From contig DASVDK010000101.1 of the NCBI GenBank assembly GCA_036381125.1, positions 1-6,911 on the forward strand: 6,911 nucleotides of DNA, in the 5' to 3' direction. Position numbers and translations under genes: made by a program. This DNA is from DASVDK01 sp036381125 [NCBI: Thermodesulfobacteriota bacterium] (lineage in GTDB: Bacteria > DASVDK01). Under the pieces are notes generated by a model, which saw nothing but the letters and a program-made list of their open reading frames with translations, had not been told where the DNA came from and made no database searches. Positions 1 to 6,911 of this stretch are shown one piece after another. The first letter of the stretch is position 1, and the number at the start of each line of letters is the position of its first letter.

Positions 1-1724
1 AGCTCGTGCGCGCCGCGCCGGACCACGAGCCAGCGCGCGTCCTCGTCGAAGCGGCATTGCGCCTCGCCGCGGACCGTGCGCCGCATTCGCAGCAGGTCGC
101 CGAACAGGCCGCGCAGGCGCTCGTCGCCGCGGCCGGTCAGCTTCGAGCGCGCGAACGTCGCCGGGTCCTGCGGATCGGGCACCTCCTCGCCGGCGAACTG
201 CGCGAACGCGGCGAACTCGCGCCGGCGCCCCTCGCGCGTCGCGTCGGCGATCTCGGCGTCGACGTGGTCGGTGAAGAACTGGAACGGCGCGTCCTCGCCG
301 TACTCCTCGCCCATGAACAGCAGCGGCGTGTAGGGCGAGAGCAGGATGCAGAACGCCGCCAGCGGCCGCGCCTCGCGCGGCAGCCGGTCGCCGAGCGCGC
401 GGTTGCCGACCTGGTCGTGGTTCTGGGCGAAGACGACGAAGCGCTCCCCGGGAAGGTCGCGCGACGGCGTGCCGTGGGGCCGGCCTCGGTAGGTCGAGCG
501 CTGCCCGGTGTAGACGAACCCCTCGGTGTACGCCTTGACGAGCTGGTCGACGCGGCCGAAGTCGGCGTAGTAGCCGCTCCGCTCGCCCGTCACGAGCGCG
601 TGGAGGGCGTGGTGGAAGTCGTCCGACCACTGCGCGGCGAGCCCGTAGCCGCCCGCCGACACCCGATCGATCACCCGCCGGTCGTTGAGGTCGCTCTCGG
701 CGATCACGTGCACCGCCCGCCCCGCGCGCCGGGCCGCCCGCTGCACGGCGTCGTTCAGCTCGCGCAGGATGTGCACCGGGCTGTCGTCCACGATGCCGTG
801 GACGGCGTCGAGCCGGAGCGCGTCGACGTGGAACTCGGTGACCCACCGGACGGCGTTCTCGACGACGAAGCGTCGCACCGGAGCCGAGTCCGGCCCGTCG
901 AAGTTCACCGCGTCGCCCCAGGGCGTCTTGTGCCGGTCGGTGAAGTACGGGCCGAACTCCGCGAGGTAGTTCCCCTCGGGTCCGAGGTGGTTGTAGACGA
1001 CGTCGAGGACCACGCAGAGCCCCTGCTCGTGGCAGGCGTCGACCAGGCGGGCGAGCCCCTCGGGGCCGCCGTAGCTGCGCTGGGGCGCGTAGAGCCCCAC
1101 GCCGTCGTAGCCCCAGTTGCGGTCGCCGGGGAAGCTCGCGACCGGCATCAGCTCGATCGCGGTCACGCCGAGCGCCCGGAGGTCCGCGAGGCGGCCGATC
1201 ACCGCCTCGAAGGTCCCCTCGGGCGTGAAGGTGCCGACGTGCAATTCGTAGACGACGTACTCGTGCAGCGGCCGGCCGCGCCACGCGGCGTCGCTCCAGA
1301 CGAACGCCCCCATGTCGACCACCTCGGCCGCGCCGTGGACGCCGTCGGGAAGGGCGCGCGCCGCCGGGTCCGGACGGGCCCGCTCGCCGTCGAGCACGTA
1401 GCGATACCGCAGGCCGGGCCCCCCCTCGACGACCGCCTCGTAGTACCCCTCGGCGTCGCGCGCCGCCGCAACGCGCACCGGCGCGCCGCCCGCCGGCGTC
1501 ACCTCCACCTCGAGCGAGCGGCAGCGGGGCGCCCAGACGCGGAACGCGACGCGGCCGTCCGGCAGCGGGGTCGCGCCGAGCGGCAGAGCGGCGCGGGCAG
1601 GTCGGTGGACCTCGGCAACACGAGCGGAACGGGACAACGGTCTGGTCTCCAGGGTACGGGCGCGGGTGTCGTTGTGTTGCACATCACATGCCGCCCCGGG
1701 CCGGGGGGTCCGATCGTTCGGCAT
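1..1724 (-). CDS. treZ: Malto-oligosyltrehalose trehalohydrolase TreZ (3' end cut by window edge)
   Basis: A GH13 alpha-amylase-family enzyme that hydrolyses the alpha-1,4 bond next to the terminal trehalosyl unit of maltooligosyl-trehalose, releasing free trehalose in the cytoplasm (second step of the TreY-TreZ pathway). The reading frame is open for 574 codons to the edge, so only a short C-terminal piece is missing. An N-terminal E-set/CBM48-like part (ALPLGATPLPDGRVAFRVWAP) is followed by the barrel motifs YELHVGTFTPEGTF, NWGYDGVGLYAP and VVYNHLGPEGNY. Counting from ATG 1724, the expected catalytic residues are D306 in LRLDAVH, E342 in VIAESDLND and D437 in NHDQVGNR; QWSDDFHHALH is also present. 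The start is uncertain. ATG 1724 is the outermost in-frame ATG but has no clear ribosome site. TTG 1637 has GGAG nine bases upstream (1650-1647) and gives a more family-like N-terminus; GTG 1682 is a third option. The partner treY is not in the window and may lie to the left. Identity is very sure; the start is not. Confidence 0.96.
   Translation of the reverse strand, partial: MPNDRTPRPGAACDVQHNDTRARTLETRPLSRSARVAEVHRPARAALPLGATPLPDGRVAFRVWAPRCRSLEVEVTPAGGAPVRVAAARDAEGYYEAVVEGGPGLRYRYVLDGERARPDPAARALPDGVHGAAEVVDMGAFVWSDAAWRGRPLHEYVVYELHVGTFTPEGTFEAVIGRLADLRALGVTAIELMPVASFPGDRNWGYDGVGLYAPQRSYGGPEGLARLVDACHEQGLCVVLDVVYNHLGPEGNYLAEFGPYFTDRHKTPWGDAVNFDGPDSAPVRRFVVENAVRWVTEFHVDALRLDAVHGIVDDSPVHILRELNDAVQRAARRAGRAVHVIAESDLNDRRVIDRVSAGGYGLAAQWSDDFHHALHALVTGERSGYYADFGRVDQLVKAYTEGFVYTGQRSTYRGRPHGTPSRDLPGERFVVFAQNHDQVGNRALGDRLPREARPLAAFCILLSPYTPLLFMGEEYGEDAPFQFFTDHVDAEIADATREGRRREFAAFAQFAGEEVPDPQDPATFARSKLTGRGDERLRGLFGDLLRMRRTVRGEAQCRFDEDARWLVVRRGAHE
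1673..1688 (-). promoter_or_regulatory. CRP/FNR-family-like palindrome near the treZ start
   Basis: On the minus strand the 16 bases read TGTGATGTGCAACACA, which matches the CRP half-site layout TGTGA-N6-TCACA at nine of ten fixed positions. It lies about 36 bases upstream of the TTG 1637 start of treZ, but inside the gene if ATG 1724 is used. It sits in a locally less GC-rich patch, next to a perfect GC inverted repeat (1694-1706). No convincing -35/-10 pair was found beside it. A regulatory role is inference from similarity to the consensus alone. Confidence 0.22.
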
Positions 1725-1801: not shown

Positions 1802-1894
1802 TTATGACTCAAACCCCCGCGCGGCCGGCTCCGGCCCGCCGATGGCCGCCATGAAGGGGCCGCCCTGCCGGCGGGCCGCCTCCGTCTCGCTCAT
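1802..1894 (-). CDS. Small hypothetical ORF (30 aa) overlapping the purK stop
   Basis: Thirty codons starting at an ATG that shares ATGA with the purK stop (ATG 1894-1892, TGA 1893-1891) and ending at TAA 1804-1802. The peptide begins MSETEAARRQGGPFM and ends GFES; it is rich in Gly, Ala, Glu and Arg, with no membrane segment, Cys pair or recognisable motif. The ATGA overlap would allow translational coupling to purK, and treZ begins 77 bases further on. It does not resemble PurE, the usual partner of PurK. It may be a real small protein, the remnant of a decayed gene, or chance: at this GC content stop-free frames are common, which weakens the case. No function can be given. Confidence 0.25.
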   Translation of the reverse strand: MSETEAARRQGGPFMAAIGGPEPAARGFES

Positions 1895-2997
1895 CGCTCC
1901 GCCTGCGCGACGATCGGCTCGATCGACGCAAGCCGCGCCGCGAGCCGGCCGGCGTCGGCCTCGACGAGCGTCACGTGCCCGATCTTCCGGCCCGGCCGCG
2001 GCGCCTTCCGGTAGAGGTGGAGGTGGAGCCCCTCGACGCGCAGCAGTGCCGCGGGATCCGGATGGCCGCCGACGAGGTTCAGCATGGCGGCGTGCCCCCG
2101 CGGCCGCGCCGCGCCGAGCGGCAGGCCGGCCACCGCCCGGACGTGCTGCTCGAACTGGCTCGTCTCGGCCCCCTCGATCGTCCAGTGGCCCGAGTTGTGG
2201 ACCCGCGGCGCCATCTCGTTGGCCAGGAGCCGTCCGCTCGCCTCGAACAGCTCGATGGCGAGGACCCCGACGTAGTCGAAGCGGGCCAGCACCGCCCGCG
2301 CGTAGCGCTCCGCCTCGGCCTGCCACCGCTCGCCCGACGGCGCCGGGGCGAGCGACCGCCTGAGGACCCCGCCGCGATGGACGTTCTCGACGAGCGGGTA
2401 GACCCGGACGTCGCCGTCGAGCCCGCGGGCGGCGAGGACCGACAGCTCGCGCTCGAACGGGACGAAGCCCTCGAGGAGGAGCGGCGAGCCGCCGAGCGCG
2501 CGCCACGCGGCCTCGACGTCCGCACCGTCGCGCAGCACCGCCTGCCCCTTGCCGTCGTAACCGCCGCGGCGCGCCTTGAGGACGGCGGGCAGGCCGATGC
2601 GCGCGAGCGCGGCGTCGAGATCAGCCCGGCTGTCGACCGGCGCGAAGGGAGGGATGGGGATGCCGAGCGCCTCGAACGTCCGCTTCTCGACCAGCCGGTC
2701 CTGGGCCGCCTCGAGGACGTCGGGCGCCGGGCGCACCGGCAGGCGCCGCGCGAGCGCCCGCGCGGCGGCCACCGGGACGTTCTCGAACTCGTAGGTGACG
2801 ACGTCGAGGCCCTCGGCGAAGCGGGACAGGGCGGCCTCGTCGGCGTACGGCGCCGCCTCGTGCGGGGCGACGTCGCCGGCGGGCGCCTCGGGCGCCGGGT
2901 CGAGGACGCGGAAGCGGAGGCCGAGCGGGTAGCCCGCCAGCGCGAGCATCCGGCCGAGCTGACCGCCGCCGAGGATGCCGATACGCATGCGGGTCAT
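1891..2997 (-). CDS. purK: N5-carboxyaminoimidazole ribonucleotide synthetase PurK
   Basis: ATP-grasp enzyme of purine synthesis. It converts 5-aminoimidazole ribonucleotide, bicarbonate and ATP to N5-CAIR, which the mutase PurE then rearranges. The 368 residues match the family's usual size. The N-terminal domain opens with GILGGGQLGRML (residues 7-18) and has VTYEFENVP (67-75). The ATP-grasp part contains LKARRGGYDGKGQ (140-152), EGFVPFERELSV (176-187), YPLVENVHRGG (200-210) and the metal/substrate segment NEMAPRVHNSGHWTIEGA (260-277). The C-terminal domain has LNLVGG (306-311). The frame stays open far upstream, across the opposite-strand gene, but homology begins at MTRMRIGILGGG. ATG 2997 and ATG 2988 are both possible and neither has a good ribosome site. 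No purE is adjacent; the short ORF behind it is not PurE. It is transcribed divergently from the ferritin-like gene. Confidence 0.96.
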   Translation of the reverse strand: MTRMRIGILGGGQLGRMLALAGYPLGLRFRVLDPAPEAPAGDVAPHEAAPYADEAALSRFAEGLDVVTYEFENVPVAAARALARRLPVRPAPDVLEAAQDRLVEKRTFEALGIPIPPFAPVDSRADLDAALARIGLPAVLKARRGGYDGKGQAVLRDGADVEAAWRALGGSPLLLEGFVPFERELSVLAARGLDGDVRVYPLVENVHRGGVLRRSLAPAPSGERWQAEAERYARAVLARFDYVGVLAIELFEASGRLLANEMAPRVHNSGHWTIEGAETSQFEQHVRAVAGLPLGAARPRGHAAMLNLVGGHPDPAALLRVEGLHLHLYRKAPRPGRKIGHVTLVEADAGRLAARLASIEPIVAQAER

Positions 2998-3150: not shown

Positions 3151-4407
3151 ATGGCACTCACGACGCTGGACCCCTGGCGCGAGAAGGGGATCCCGCTCGA
3201 CAGGCAGATCCGCTCGTGGAAGCAGCGCGTCCGCTCCCCCTACGACAAGCGCGACGTCGACGCCTACACGCGCACGCGCGTGATCCTCATGAACGGCATC
3301 GAGAACGAGGCGTGGTTCAACAGCCACCAGCTCTCCCGGTGCACGGACAACACGGAGCTGAAGTCCCTCGCGGCGGTCACCCGGATGGTCGAGCAGCAGC
3401 AGCAGACGACCATCAACTGGCTCAACCCCGCCGACCAGTCGGTGCTCGAGACCACGGTCGCCTACGAGCAGGTCGCGATCGACCTCACCGCCTACCTGGC
3501 GCGCAACGAGCCCGACCCGTACGTGCGCGAGACGTTCAACTTCGGGCTCCTCGAGGACTTCGACCACCTCTACCGGTACAGCGAGCTGCTCGACTACCTC
3601 GAGGAGATCGACCCCGACACGATCCTCCAGGGCAAGACCGAGGTCCTGCCCGGCCGGCCGACGATCGACCACCACAACGACCCGATCGTGCGGCTCAGGA
3701 AGCACTACGAAAAGAACCGGGCGCTGCCGATCTCGAAGCTCCACATCCTCACGCTCATGTCGGCCGAGCAGCAGACGTACCTCTACTACAAGTCGCACGG
3801 CTTCGAGTACCCGCAGCGCATCGCCCGCGAGCTGTACGCCGAGATCGGCGAGGTCGAGGAGGAGCACGTCACCCAGTACGAGTCGCTGCTCGACCCGAAC
3901 GAGACGCCGCTCGAGCGGCAGGTCCTCCACGAGCTGATGGAGGTCTACAACTACATGCACTGCTACGCGCAGGAGCCCGATCGGCGGATCAAGCAGATCT
4001 GGGAGGAGTTCCTGCACATGGAGCTGACGCACCTGCAGCTCTGGGGGCAGATGCTCCGGAAGCACGAGGGGATCGAGCCGGAGGCGCTCTTCGGCCGCAC
4101 GCTCACGGTGGACTTCTCCTTCGAGGAGAACAAGCCGTACGTGCGCGAGGTGCTCGAGCGGCAGCGCGACCTCAGGCTGGTCGACCGGGGCTTCGCGCAC
4201 CGCGACGAGCTGCCGTCCGACTGGTCCTCGTACCGCTACCGCGAGGCGGTGCACGCGGGCGGCGTGCCGTCGGAGGAGATCGTCGACATCCAGGCCGAGC
4301 GCAACCTGCCGATCGAGCGGCCGGGGGACGAGCTACTCGCCCGGGCGAGGCGCGTGGCCCAGTCCATCGAGCCGGACCAGCGACCCCGGCTCCTCATGAG
4401 GGCCTAG
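3151..4407 (+). CDS. Double ferritin-like (tandem four-helix diiron bundle) protein, function unknown
   Basis: A 418-residue soluble, acidic, helical protein with no signal peptide or membrane segment. It contains two ferritin-like four-helix units. Unit 2 shows the full carboxylate-diiron ligand set: E206 (SAEQQTY), E236xxH239 (EEEH), E261 (or E264) and E291xxH294 (ELTH), with a further E286xxH289 one turn before. Unit 1 has the same layout exactly 155 residues earlier: E51, E81xxQ84, E106 and D136xxH139, with Gln in place of one His and Asp in place of one Glu. Within each unit the helix pairs are 30 residues apart and the two pairs are 55 apart. The last 100 residues or so (from about 318) are charged and not recognised. 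Such folds bind iron for oxidation, storage or redox chemistry, but no named family such as bacterioferritin, Dps or rubrerythrin fits the length or duplication. It is first of three co-directional genes, 74 bases before the next. The diiron fold is well supported; the function is not known. Confidence 0.88.
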   Translation: MALTTLDPWREKGIPLDRQIRSWKQRVRSPYDKRDVDAYTRTRVILMNGIENEAWFNSHQLSRCTDNTELKSLAAVTRMVEQQQQTTINWLNPADQSVLETTVAYEQVAIDLTAYLARNEPDPYVRETFNFGLLEDFDHLYRYSELLDYLEEIDPDTILQGKTEVLPGRPTIDHHNDPIVRLRKHYEKNRALPISKLHILTLMSAEQQTYLYYKSHGFEYPQRIARELYAEIGEVEEEHVTQYESLLDPNETPLERQVLHELMEVYNYMHCYAQEPDRRIKQIWEEFLHMELTHLQLWGQMLRKHEGIEPEALFGRTLTVDFSFEENKPYVREVLERQRDLRLVDRGFAHRDELPSDWSSYRYREAVHAGGVPSEEIVDIQAERNLPIERPGDELLARARRVAQSIEPDQRPRLLMRA

Positions 4408-4481: not shown

Positions 4482-5147
4482 ATGGAACGTCAGGTGCTCT
4501 TCGACAAGCTGTCCGAGTTCCTCATGGTCGAGCAGGGGGGGCTGCAGATCTACCGCGTCGCGGCCTCGCGCGCGCGCCGGCCCGACCTCAAGGCGCGCTA
4601 CGAGGCGTTCGGCCGCCAGACGGACCGCCATCGCCAGTGGCTCGTCGGCGCGATCACGAGCCTGGGCGGCGACCCGAACTACGTGAGCCCGACGGCGCGC
4701 ATCGCCCAGGCCAGGGCCGACGCCCTGCTCGGGACGGCGCTCCTCGCCGGGCCGCTCGCGCCCGACGAGGTCGAGGCGAACGACCTGCAGAACGTCCTCC
4801 TGGCCGAGACGGTCGACCACGGCAACTGGCAGGTCCTCAAGCGCCTGGTGCGCAGCACCGGCGACCTCGACGTCCGGCTCGCCCTCGAGGACGCCGTGCG
4901 CGAGGTCGAGGCCGAGGAGGACACCCACGTCGGCTGGGCGCGCGAGCGTTACGGCCAGCTCGCGCTCGAGATGATCGAGCGCGGCCCCGTGCCCTCGCCC
5001 GCGCGCTGGATGCACGCGATCTCGGGGCCGGTGCCGCCGATCGACCGCATCCACCCGTCGCCCGTCGACTCGGGGCTCCTCGGTCCGGCGTTGCAGGCCG
5101 CCTGGGGCGACACCCCGATCGCGCGCGACATGCGGCTCGCCGGGTGA
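4482..5147 (+). CDS. Ferritin-like domain protein with Pro-rich C-terminal tail
   Basis: A 221-residue soluble protein with the helical pattern of a single ferritin-like bundle. Candidate ligand positions are E17 (MVEQGG), H50 (in QTDRHRQW), E109 (LLAETVDHGNW) and E146xxH149 (EEDTH). The residue three before H50, where a Glu would complete an ExxH pair, is T47, so the site would lack one carboxylate unless E41 or D48 replaces it. Helices run roughly 5-30, 34-62, 95-125 and 130-162. A tail of about 54 residues from 168 is Pro-rich, repeats GPVP (168-171 and 182-185), and is predicted by eye to be extended or flexible. No close kinship with the 418-residue neighbour is obvious beyond the fold. 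Its TGA overlaps the GTG of the next gene (GTGA), which suggests one operon with translational coupling. The fold is likely; metal binding and role are inferred. Confidence 0.8.
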   Translation: MERQVLFDKLSEFLMVEQGGLQIYRVAASRARRPDLKARYEAFGRQTDRHRQWLVGAITSLGGDPNYVSPTARIAQARADALLGTALLAGPLAPDEVEANDLQNVLLAETVDHGNWQVLKRLVRSTGDLDVRLALEDAVREVEAEEDTHVGWARERYGQLALEMIERGPVPSPARWMHAISGPVPPIDRIHPSPVDSGLLGPALQAAWGDTPIARDMRLAG

Positions 5148-6040
5148 TCACGCTCGAGAACGGCCACCTCGTCCTCACGATTCGGCCCGACCTCGGCGGC
5201 CGGATCGAGAACCTCGTCGATCGCCGCACGGGCCGCACGTGGCTCTGGCACCCCGACGTCTACGAGCCGGCGCCGAGGACGCTGCCGATCGGCGCGTCCT
5301 TCGACGACCACTGGACGGGTGGGCTCGACGAGGTCTTCCCCAACGACGCGGCCGGCCGGTTCGGGGGGCGCAACCTCGTGGACCACGGCGAGCTGTGGAG
5401 CCGGCCGTGGACGGTGCTCGAGACGTCGCCGTACCTGGTGACGATGCGACTGGCCTGCCGCACGGTGCCGGTCGTCGTCGAGAAGGCGATCGAGGTCGAT
5501 CCCGACCGGCCGGAGGCCCGCCTGCACTACCGGCTCGATCACCGGGGCGACGCGCCCCTGCCGTTCCTCTTCAAGCTGCACGCGGCGGTGCGGGTGGCGG
5601 CCGGCGACCGGATCCTGCTGCCCCCGTGCACCGTGGAGCCGGTGACGCTCGACTTCAGCACCATCGTGGGCCGCGCCGAGCCGACCCCCTGGCCGATCGC
5701 GCACGACGCGGCGGGCGAGCCGGTCCGCCTCGATCTCGTCCCGCCGCGCGAGGCGAACGCGCAGGAGTTCCTCTACGCGAGCGGGCTCGGCGACGGGTTC
5801 TGCGGGGTCGAGGACGGGCGGGGCAACGGGGAACTCCTCTTCCGCTTCGACCTGGCGGCGTTCCCCTGCGTCTGGCTCTTCCAGAGCTACGGCCGGTGGC
5901 GCGGGCATTACGTCGTGGTCCTCGAGCCGGCGACGACGATGCCCTACGACCTCCACGAGGCGCTCGCGCGCGGGACCTGCGCGGTGCTCGAGCCCGGGGC
6001 GACGCGGGCGCTCGACGTCGCCGTCTCGCTCACCGCCTGA
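5144..6040 (+). CDS. Aldose 1-epimerase-like (galactose mutarotase fold) protein
   Basis: A 298-residue beta-rich protein of the aldose-epimerase/mutarotase superfamily, whose members interconvert sugar anomers or bind related carbohydrates in the cytoplasm. The N-terminus VITLENGHLVLTIRPDLGGRI (residue 1 is Met in the protein, as GTG is the start) is typical of the fold. Family-like motifs follow: GGLDEVFPN (59-67), DHGELWSRPW (80-89), LFKLHAAVRV (142-151) and VVLEPATTMPYDL (258-270), then a closing LEPGAT (282-287). H81, H146 and E261 are the likely catalytic or sugar-binding His/His/Glu by position in the family. The start is GTG 5144, which overlaps the previous stop by four bases; no better in-frame start exists. 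The 3' end overlaps the convergent debranching-enzyme gene by 11 bases. The substrate is unknown. The glucan neighbourhood suggests glucose or a maltooligosaccharide, and a non-catalytic sugar sensor is also possible. Confidence 0.85.
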   Translation: MITLENGHLVLTIRPDLGGRIENLVDRRTGRTWLWHPDVYEPAPRTLPIGASFDDHWTGGLDEVFPNDAAGRFGGRNLVDHGELWSRPWTVLETSPYLVTMRLACRTVPVVVEKAIEVDPDRPEARLHYRLDHRGDAPLPFLFKLHAAVRVAAGDRILLPPCTVEPVTLDFSTIVGRAEPTPWPIAHDAAGEPVRLDLVPPREANAQEFLYASGLGDGFCGVEDGRGNGELLFRFDLAAFPCVWLFQSYGRWRGHYVVVLEPATTMPYDLHEALARGTCAVLEPGATRALDVAVSLTA

Positions 6041-6911
6041 CGACGAGCCCGACGTCCCCCGACTTGTCGAGCACCTCGAGCGACGCGCCCTGCCGGCCGC
6101 GCCGGAAGCGCAGGTCGACCCGCCCCGGCCCGACGCGCAGGCCGATCACCTCCACCCAGTCGAGCCAGGGGGGCAGGTTCGGCGCGTCGAGGGAGACCGA
6201 GCGGCCGAGCGCGTCGATCTCGAGACCGAGGAGCGACCGCAAGAGCTCGAGCGGCGCGGCCGCGGCCCAGGCCTGCGGGGAGCAGGAGACCGGATAGCGG
6301 GTCGGGCCGAAGCCGGGCACGCGGTGGAAGCCGCAGAACAGCTCCGGCAGCCTGAAGTCCTCGAAGAAGAGGCTCGCCTCGAAGAGCGCGGTGGCGAGGG
6401 TCTCGAGGTGACCCGACTGCCCGTAGCGCTTGAGCCCCGCGCCGACGATGGCGTTGTCGTGCGGCCACACCGACCCGTTGTGGTAGGACATCGGGTTGTA
6501 GCGCACCTCGCGGTCCGCCAGCGTCCGGACGCCCCAGCCGCTGAACGACTCCGGCGAGAGGAGCCGCGCCCCGACGCGGGCCGCCCGCTCGGGCCGCGGC
6601 AGCCCGCAGTAGAGCAGGTGCCCCGCGTTGGAGGCGACGATCTGACAGGGGCGCTTGGCGCCGTCGAGCGCGATGGCGTACGTCCCCTCCTCCTCCCACC
6701 AGAAGGCCCGCTCCACCCGGTCGGCCAGGTCGGCCGCCTCCGTCTCGAGCCTCGCGGCGAGGCTCTCGTGGCCGAGGCGCGCCGAGAGGACGGCCATCCC
6801 GCGCTTGGCGGCGTAGACGTATCCCTGGACCTCGACCAGCGCGATCGGCGGCTCGGCGTCGCGGCCGCTCGCGTGGAAGATCGGGTCGCGCGAGTCCTTC
6901 CACCCCTGCTG
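6030..6911 (-). CDS. Glycogen debranching enzyme (amylo-alpha-1,6-glucosidase), C-terminal part, 5' end off the window
   Basis: The last 293 residues of a bacterial glycogen-debranching enzyme of the GDE_C/amylo-alpha-1,6-glucosidase type, which removes alpha-1,6 branch glucoses from glycogen or limit dextrin in the cytoplasm. The (alpha/alpha)6-barrel signatures are clear: QQGWKDSRDPIF at the window edge, ALVEVQGYVYAAKRG (24-38 of the part seen), SNAGHLLYCGL (94-104), SGWGVRTLA (124-132), RYNPMSYHNGSVWPHDNAI (137-155), RLPELFCGF (187-195) and YPVSCSPQAWAAAAP (206-220). A short beta-rich tail ends at TGA 6032-6030. Full-length members usually have 650-750 residues, so more than half lies to the right of the window. 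The Met at 6797 is internal, because family homology continues past it to the edge. It converges with the mutarotase-like gene, and the two coding ends overlap. Confidence 0.95.
   Translation of the reverse strand, partial: QQGWKDSRDPIFHASGRDAEPPIALVEVQGYVYAAKRGMAVLSARLGHESLAARLETEAADLADRVERAFWWEEEGTYAIALDGAKRPCQIVASNAGHLLYCGLPRPERAARVGARLLSPESFSGWGVRTLADREVRYNPMSYHNGSVWPHDNAIVGAGLKRYGQSGHLETLATALFEASLFFEDFRLPELFCGFHRVPGFGPTRYPVSCSPQAWAAAAPLELLRSLLGLEIDALGRSVSLDAPNLPPWLDWVEVIGLRVGPGRVDLRFRRGRQGASLEVLDKSGDVGLVVRR

What the first reader, a model, noticed from the sequence alone, without database searches (positions are those of the whole stretch)
3301..4032. Eight diiron-type ligand positions repeat in exact 155-residue register
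In the 418-residue protein, E51, E81, E106 and D136 line up with E206, E236, E261 and E291, each exactly 155 residues apart. The partner positions Q84/H239 and H139/H294 keep the same offset. Within each half the ligand spacings are 30, 25 and 30. This is a clear fingerprint of a duplicated four-helix bundle, giving one chain with two potential diiron sites and a further 100-residue tail. I do not recognise a named family with this layout. The positions were read from the sequence; the family expectation for E/ExxH/E/ExxH comes from ferritin-like diiron proteins.
Basis: partly seen in the sequence, partly recalled or inferred. Interest (0 to 1): 0.72.

Follow-up and report, generated by a model that had tools for sequence, protein, structure and literature searches.

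The report
Uncatalogued double ferritin-like metal protein
This gene belongs to an unnamed bacterial family in which a ferritin-like four-helix unit has been doubled within one chain, each copy keeping its own set of likely metal-binding residues, probably for handling iron, oxygen or peroxide stress.

Summary
Every named residue is where stated. The two halves of the 418-aa protein are homologous in a 155-residue register: profile score 124.7 against 11.7 +/- 2.1 for shuffled columns. Half-1 and half-2 sequences separate in a tree with 99% support, so the doubling predates the family. Both ligand sets are conserved across 18 non-redundant members. Two corrections. Half 1 is modified: position 84 is Gln in 14 of 18 and His in 4, and helix C has one Glu. 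The window protein matches no Pfam family; one remote member passes Pfam's Rubrerythrin cut-off. In 20 of 35 loci a second helical-bundle metalloprotein gene (ferritin-like/DUF892 or hemerythrin) lies alongside. Structure predictions were too weak (mean pLDDT 39.5 and 53.8) to show that the ligands converge. Best reading: a new tandem ferritin-like family with one complete and one modified dimetal site, probably acting in peroxide/iron stress; that function is inferred.

The parts
3151..4407 (+). tandem ferritin-like protein, 418 aa (P1); two homologous halves and a C-terminal tail
3238..3645 (+). half 1 (about residues 30-165): E51, E81xxQ84, E106, D136xxH139; modified dimetal site
   Evidence: alignment and conservation; four helices in a low-confidence model
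3703..4110 (+). half 2 (about residues 185-320): E206, E236xxH239, E261xxE264, E291xxH294; complete sulerythrin-like seven-residue set
   Evidence: residue order compared with sulerythrin passages
4111..4404 (+). C-terminal tail (residues 321-418), not similar to either half; 10 positions at 70% or more identity among 21 members
4482..5147 (+). second ferritin-like/DUF892-like gene (P2, 221 aa), directly downstream; same pair in L001, L002 and L003

Best explanation
The protein is a tandem ferritin-like protein: an ancestral four-helix bundle of the rubrerythrin/encapsulated-ferritin kind was doubled within one gene before the family spread. Each half should fold as a bundle whose four helices supply E, ExxH, E, ExxH to a dimetal centre. 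Half 2 carries a complete seven-residue set and is the more likely catalytic site: two carboxylate bridges (E236, E291), terminal E206, H239, E261 and H294, and E264 placed as the extra Glu that in sulerythrin contacts the oxygen species. Half 1 keeps the carboxylates and H139 but has Gln in place of the first His and no second helix-C Glu, so it probably binds metal differently or supports the other site. The most likely role is reaction of a reduced iron (or manganese) centre with peroxide or oxygen, as scavenger or ferroxidase, together with the co-encoded ferritin-like protein P2, a partner replaced elsewhere by DUF892 or hemerythrin proteins. Shown: the duplication, ligand conservation and gene neighbourhood. 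Inferred: the fold in detail, metal binding, joint action with P2, and the peroxide/iron-stress role (about 0.4 on its own).
For: Half-half homology far beyond controls; half-1/half-2 split with 99% ultrafast bootstrap. Ligand conservation in 18 non-redundant members: E51 17, E81 17 (+1 Asp), E106 16, D136 14 (2 His, 2 gaps), H139 18, E206 18, E236 17 (+1 Asp), H239 18, E261 15 (3 Gln), E264 17, E291 15 (+3 Asp), H294 17. Residue order equals sulerythrin's Glu20, Glu53, His56, Glu92, Glu95, Glu126, His129 (passages), and the E-to-ExxH spacing of 30 equals encapsulated ferritin's Glu32, Glu62, His65 (passages). L023 passes Pfam Rubrerythrin (26.1 bits, cut-off 22.8). Partner genes beside the gene in 20 of 35 loci: P2 family in window and L001-L003, hemerythrin in 13 (Pfam-checked in three loci), a hemerythrin-DUF892 fusion in L010, Ferritin and DUF892 proteins in L012, DUF892 in L036.
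Against: No Pfam match for the window protein up to E 10; only sub-cut-off NCBIfam matches; consensus sequences of the two halves match no ferritin-like Pfam family. Profile search of solved structures: best EncB, E 0.017. Models weak; Foldseek has no match with E <= 0.001, and in the second look the top rows are mitochondrial ribosomal proteins (Z 8.8) with EncB lower (Z 7.5), all within the range expected by chance for helical bundles. P2 resembles the halves only weakly (hhalign probability 26% and 20%). No partner was seen beside L032 and L033 (by eye). No test of metal, substrate or activity.
Confidence: 0.6

Rival explanations
1. A dimanganese catalase-like enzyme: the site disproportionates peroxide using Mn rather than acting as an iron peroxidase or ferroxidase.
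For: Manganese catalases (KatB of Anabaena, Thermus) are among the Foldseek rows for half 2. The carboxylate/His set could hold Mn.
Against: None of those matches is significant (E 0.47 or worse). No Mn-catalase Pfam match in the window protein or in the 21 members.
Confidence: 0.12
2. A ferritin-like oxygenase or oxidase for a dedicated small-molecule or membrane-lipid substrate, with half 1 as a structural domain.
For: The complete dimetal site is compatible with oxygenase chemistry. Weak sub-cut-off COQ7 matches in two members.
Against: No shared biosynthetic neighbourhood: outside the helical-bundle partner, the genes around window, L001 and L003 differ. Half-1 ligands are nearly as well conserved as those of half 2, which a purely structural domain would not need.
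Confidence: 0.13
3. An iron-storage cargo for an encapsulin compartment, since EncB/EncFtn are the best sub-threshold relatives.
For: EncB_fam profile matches in 12 of 21 members, best E 6e-5; same 30-residue E-to-ExxH spacing as EncFtn.
Against: The encapsulin shell profile PF04454 was found in only 4 of 16 family-bearing genomes, not in G001-G003, the three closest relatives (genomes may be incomplete). No EncB match reaches its curated cut-off in the window protein.
Confidence: 0.05
4. Half 1 is a degenerate, non-metal half, and only half 2 is a metal site.
For: Q84 replaces the canonical His in 14 of 18 non-redundant members, and helix C has one Glu instead of two.
Against: E51, E81, E106 and H139 are conserved in 16 to 18 of 18; four divergent members keep His at position 84. 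Relaxed sites would drift further.
Confidence: 0.25

Closest known systems
Rubrerythrin / sulerythrin (Pfam PF02915 clan of ferritin-like diiron proteins)
   Same: Half 2 has the same seven residues in the same order: E, ExxH, ExxE, ExxH; a remote member (L023) passes the Pfam cut-off in half 1.
   Different: Two bundles per chain, shorter spacing (30/22/27 against 33/36/31 in sulerythrin), no rubredoxin cysteines (only C64 and C271 in the whole protein), and no Pfam match for the window protein.
Encapsulated ferritin EncFtn / EncB
   Same: E-to-ExxH spacing of exactly 30 in all four hairpins; sub-threshold EncB profile matches in 12 of 21 members.
   Different: EncFtn is a two-helix unit that builds its site across a dimer; here there are four such units in one chain, and no shell gene in 12 of 16 genomes.
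DUF892 / YciE-YciF-like stress proteins
   Same: Ferritin-like relatives found beside this gene (L010, L012, L036), and the P2 ortholog in L001 passes the DUF892 cut-off.
   Different: They are single bundles; the tandem protein itself does not match DUF892.
Hemerythrin HHE proteins
   Same: A helical metal-binding partner beside the gene in 13 of 35 loci; fused to DUF892 in Tistrella.
   Different: A neighbour, not a relative: no Hemerythrin match in the tandem protein.

Membership tests
Ferritin-like superfamily (dimetal four-helix bundle) | conserved E / ExxH / E / ExxH ligand pattern | tested here: met
   met in half 2; in half 1 with Gln (14) or His (4) at position 84 of 18 non-redundant members and Asp at 136 in 14
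Ferritin-like superfamily (dimetal four-helix bundle) | four long helices with the ligands converging in the core | tested here: inconclusive
   helix order fits in both models, but mean pLDDT is 39.5 and 53.8; no coordinates to measure
Ferritin-like superfamily (dimetal four-helix bundle) | structural match to solved ferritin-like proteins | tested here: inconclusive
   ferritin-like rows present but none significant
Rubrerythrin (PF02915) | profile match above the curated cut-off | tested here: not met
   window protein: no match; remote member L023: 26.1 bits against 22.8
Rubrerythrin (PF02915) | rubredoxin-type cysteine domain (absent in sulerythrin-type members; recalled) | tested here: not met
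   only two cysteines, C64 and C271, none in the tail
DUF892 (PF05974) | profile match above the curated cut-off | tested here: not met
   window tandem protein: no match; not among the families matched by the 21 members
Encapsulin cargo ferritins (EncFtn/EncB) | encapsulin shell gene in the same genome | tested here: not met
   4 of 16 genomes have PF04454; the three closest relatives do not
Encapsulin cargo ferritins (EncFtn/EncB) | two-helix subunit completing its site across a dimer | tested here: not met
   one chain holds four helix hairpins
Manganese catalase | dimanganese centre and catalase activity | not testable with these tools
   only non-significant fold rows

The most novel reading that the evidence does not exclude
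A bacterial protein with two deliberately unequal dimetal centres in one chain: a complete rubrerythrin-type site and a Gln-modified site kept under selection since before the family spread, working as a pair (for example one loading or reducing the other, or relaying electrons or peroxide) and with an exchangeable third helical-bundle metalloprotein as partner.
Probability: 0.25. Interest if true: 0.62.

Novelty: new variant of a known kind. Interest (0 to 1): 0.42.

Why it matters
Ferritin-like proteins have been proposed to arise by duplication of a two-helix ancestor (PMC5012862, passages). This family carries a further doubling in one chain, with both sites still conserved, so it offers a natural test of what a second, altered dimetal centre is for. 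It would also give a name to proteins that two plasmid records here list as 'hypothetical', and it points to a small stress module of helical-bundle metalloproteins whose partner gene changes between lineages.

Tried and rejected
Glu-Glu register alone as evidence: rejected, because other offsets give more pairs in this Glu-rich chain.

Full-length structure and half 2 with half-1 rows as extra depth: too low in confidence to use for ligand geometry. Foldseek on the half-2 model found nothing significant. In the second look unrelated helical proteins outrank ferritin-like ones.

Hairpin-level symmetry (A-B against C-D): scores 15.4 and 13.4 lie above the control means (8.1 and 8.9) and are in register, but a shuffle reached 15.6 in one case and 12.7 in the other, so it is suggestive only.

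P2 as a direct sister of one half: weak.

Relatives in viral contigs: none confirmed. Majority-consensus scan: no ferritin-like match.

Weak genome matches not used as family members: G043 (E 9.6e-4, four stops), G943 (E 2.9e-5, partial), G560 (one stop), and G872 (gene in two pieces).

Full report
Observation. The gene is window 3151-4407 (+) and encodes 418 aa. All twelve named residues are in place. The Glu-Glu register on its own is not decisive: 155 gives 7 pairs while three other offsets give 10. But 155 is the best of 280 offsets for identity, and the halves align with score 79 against 29.6 +/- 4.7 in 500 shuffles.

Relatives. No Pfam family matches up to E 10, only sub-cut-off NCBIfam matches, and no solved structure by sequence. 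One scan of genome contigs confirmed 3 close relatives (72-76% identity) in Chloroflexota and Actinomycetota assemblies. Protein searches gave 4 of 400 genomes in the phylum of G001, one of them doubtful, and 14 of 396 in the phylum of G002. Profile searches gave 6 of 36, 2 of 41, 11 of 150 and 9 of 149 genomes in narrower groups (these sets overlap the earlier ones and include weak or broken matches). In plasmid records there were 7 of 72,556: Nonomuraea, Tistrella, Streptantibioticus (2), Pandoraea (2) and Subdoligranulum. None was confirmed in viral contigs. The family is thus broad but patchy.

Duplication. Half 1 and half 2 match as profiles with E 5.3e-20 over 134 columns (21 sequences). 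On 35 sequences the score is 124.7, against 11.7 +/- 2.1 and a maximum of 18.1 for 60 column shuffles. A tree of both halves of 18 non-redundant members separates all half-1 from all half-2 sequences with 99% ultrafast bootstrap, so one doubling preceded the family. The 98-residue tail resembles neither half.

Ligands. In 18 members below 80% identity (drawn from 35 loci; L039 and L045 are the same gene, and L051 appears to be the Streptantibioticus gene of L011) the counts are: E51 17, E81 17 plus 1 Asp, position 84 Gln 14 and His 4, E106 16, D136 14 with 2 His and 2 gaps, H139 18, E206 18, E236 17 plus 1 Asp, H239 18, E261 15 with 3 Gln, E264 17, E291 15 plus 3 Asp, H294 17. Half 2 therefore has E, ExxH, ExxE, ExxH. 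Sulerythrin uses Glu20, Glu53, His56, Glu92, Glu95, Glu126, His129, with Glu95 and Glu92 close to the dioxygen species (PMC9589262, passages): the same residues in the same order, though with longer spacings. Encapsulated ferritin uses Glu32, Glu62, His65 (PMC5012862, passages), the same spacing of 30 seen in all four hairpins here. Half 1 lacks the first His in most members and the second helix-C Glu.

Family signal. At E <= 1, 6 of 21 members match Pfam Rubrerythrin (best 1.3e-5) and 5 of 21 EncFtn-like; 12 of 21 match the EncB family profile (best 6e-5). One remote member, L023, passes the Rubrerythrin cut-off. The consensus sequences of the halves match no ferritin-like family. A profile search of solved structures gave EncB first, at E 0.017.

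Structure. The four-sequence full-length model has mean pLDDT 39.5, and the half-2 model 53.8. Both show the expected helix order, four long helices per half, with the ligands of half 1 in H38-64, H68-90, H98-119 and H123-151 and those of half 2 in about 194-216, 223-245, 253-274 and 278-306. Neither supports a claim on ligand geometry. Foldseek rows include manganese catalases, encapsulated ferritins and EncB, none significant. The second look puts unrelated helical proteins first.

Neighbourhood. P2 (4482-5147) follows the tandem gene. It matches Rubrerythrin and DUF892 below cut-off, and its L001 ortholog passes the DUF892 cut-off. The same pair stands in L001-L003. P2 conserves E17, H50, E109 and E146xxH149 in four orthologs (read). 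A hemerythrin gene lies beside the tandem gene in 13 of 35 loci (the search model was built from six of them). Pfam confirms Hemerythrin in three loci, a hemerythrin-DUF892 fusion in Tistrella (L010), Ferritin and DUF892 proteins in Pandoraea (L012) and DUF892 in L036. That makes 20 of 35 loci with such a partner, 19 of 33 after dropping the two repeats. For the remaining loci the neighbours were not all scanned; L032 and L033 showed none by eye. Other neighbours of the window, L001 and L003 do not recur. The encapsulin shell was found in 4 of 16 genomes, not in the three closest relatives.

Interpretation. The evidence supports a tandem ferritin-like family with a complete site in half 2 and a modified but conserved site in half 1. 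The peroxide/iron-stress role is inferred from the rubrerythrin-type residue set and the company the gene keeps. No tool here tests metal or activity.

Novelty. The two plasmid annotations that cover the gene in records read here call it 'hypothetical protein'. Literature searches (listings and abstract beginnings seen) showed no paper that I could tell describes it. One search found no paper holding two or more of 'ferritin-like', 'two ferritin-like domains', 'tandem ferritin' and 'fused ferritin-like'. This covers open-licence papers only. The fold is of a known kind; the doubled, unequal arrangement appears uncatalogued.

Noticed in passing
window 4482-5147 (+) and 5144-6040 (+): P2 is followed by a gene overlapping its stop by four bases (GTGA); that gene matches DUF4432 just below cut-off (32.4 against 32.5 bits).
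   Followed up: partly
window 3-1724 (-), 1891-2988 (-), 6030-6911 (-): Neighbours: alpha-amylase/CBM48 protein (cut by the window end; probably a trehalose-forming enzyme, by inference), PurK-type ATP-grasp protein, and a glycoside hydrolase of MGH1-like type cut by the window end.
   Followed up: partly
window about 4315-4362 (+), residues 389-404: The tail motif ERPGD[ED]LL.RAR is shared by the window and L001-L003 only within alignment A1; meaning unknown.
   Followed up: no
L010 9281-10420: Tistrella plasmid pTM1 encodes a hemerythrin-DUF892 fusion directly after the tandem gene; egtB and egtD (ergothioneine) lie a few genes upstream.
   Followed up: partly
L039 7643-8095 (-): A rubrerythrin-family gene lies within 1 kb of a very divergent tandem gene, on the other strand.
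   Followed up: no
L059 and L060 (G872:C44): One genome carries the tandem gene in two pieces in different frames, apparently a broken copy or a sequencing error.
   Followed up: no
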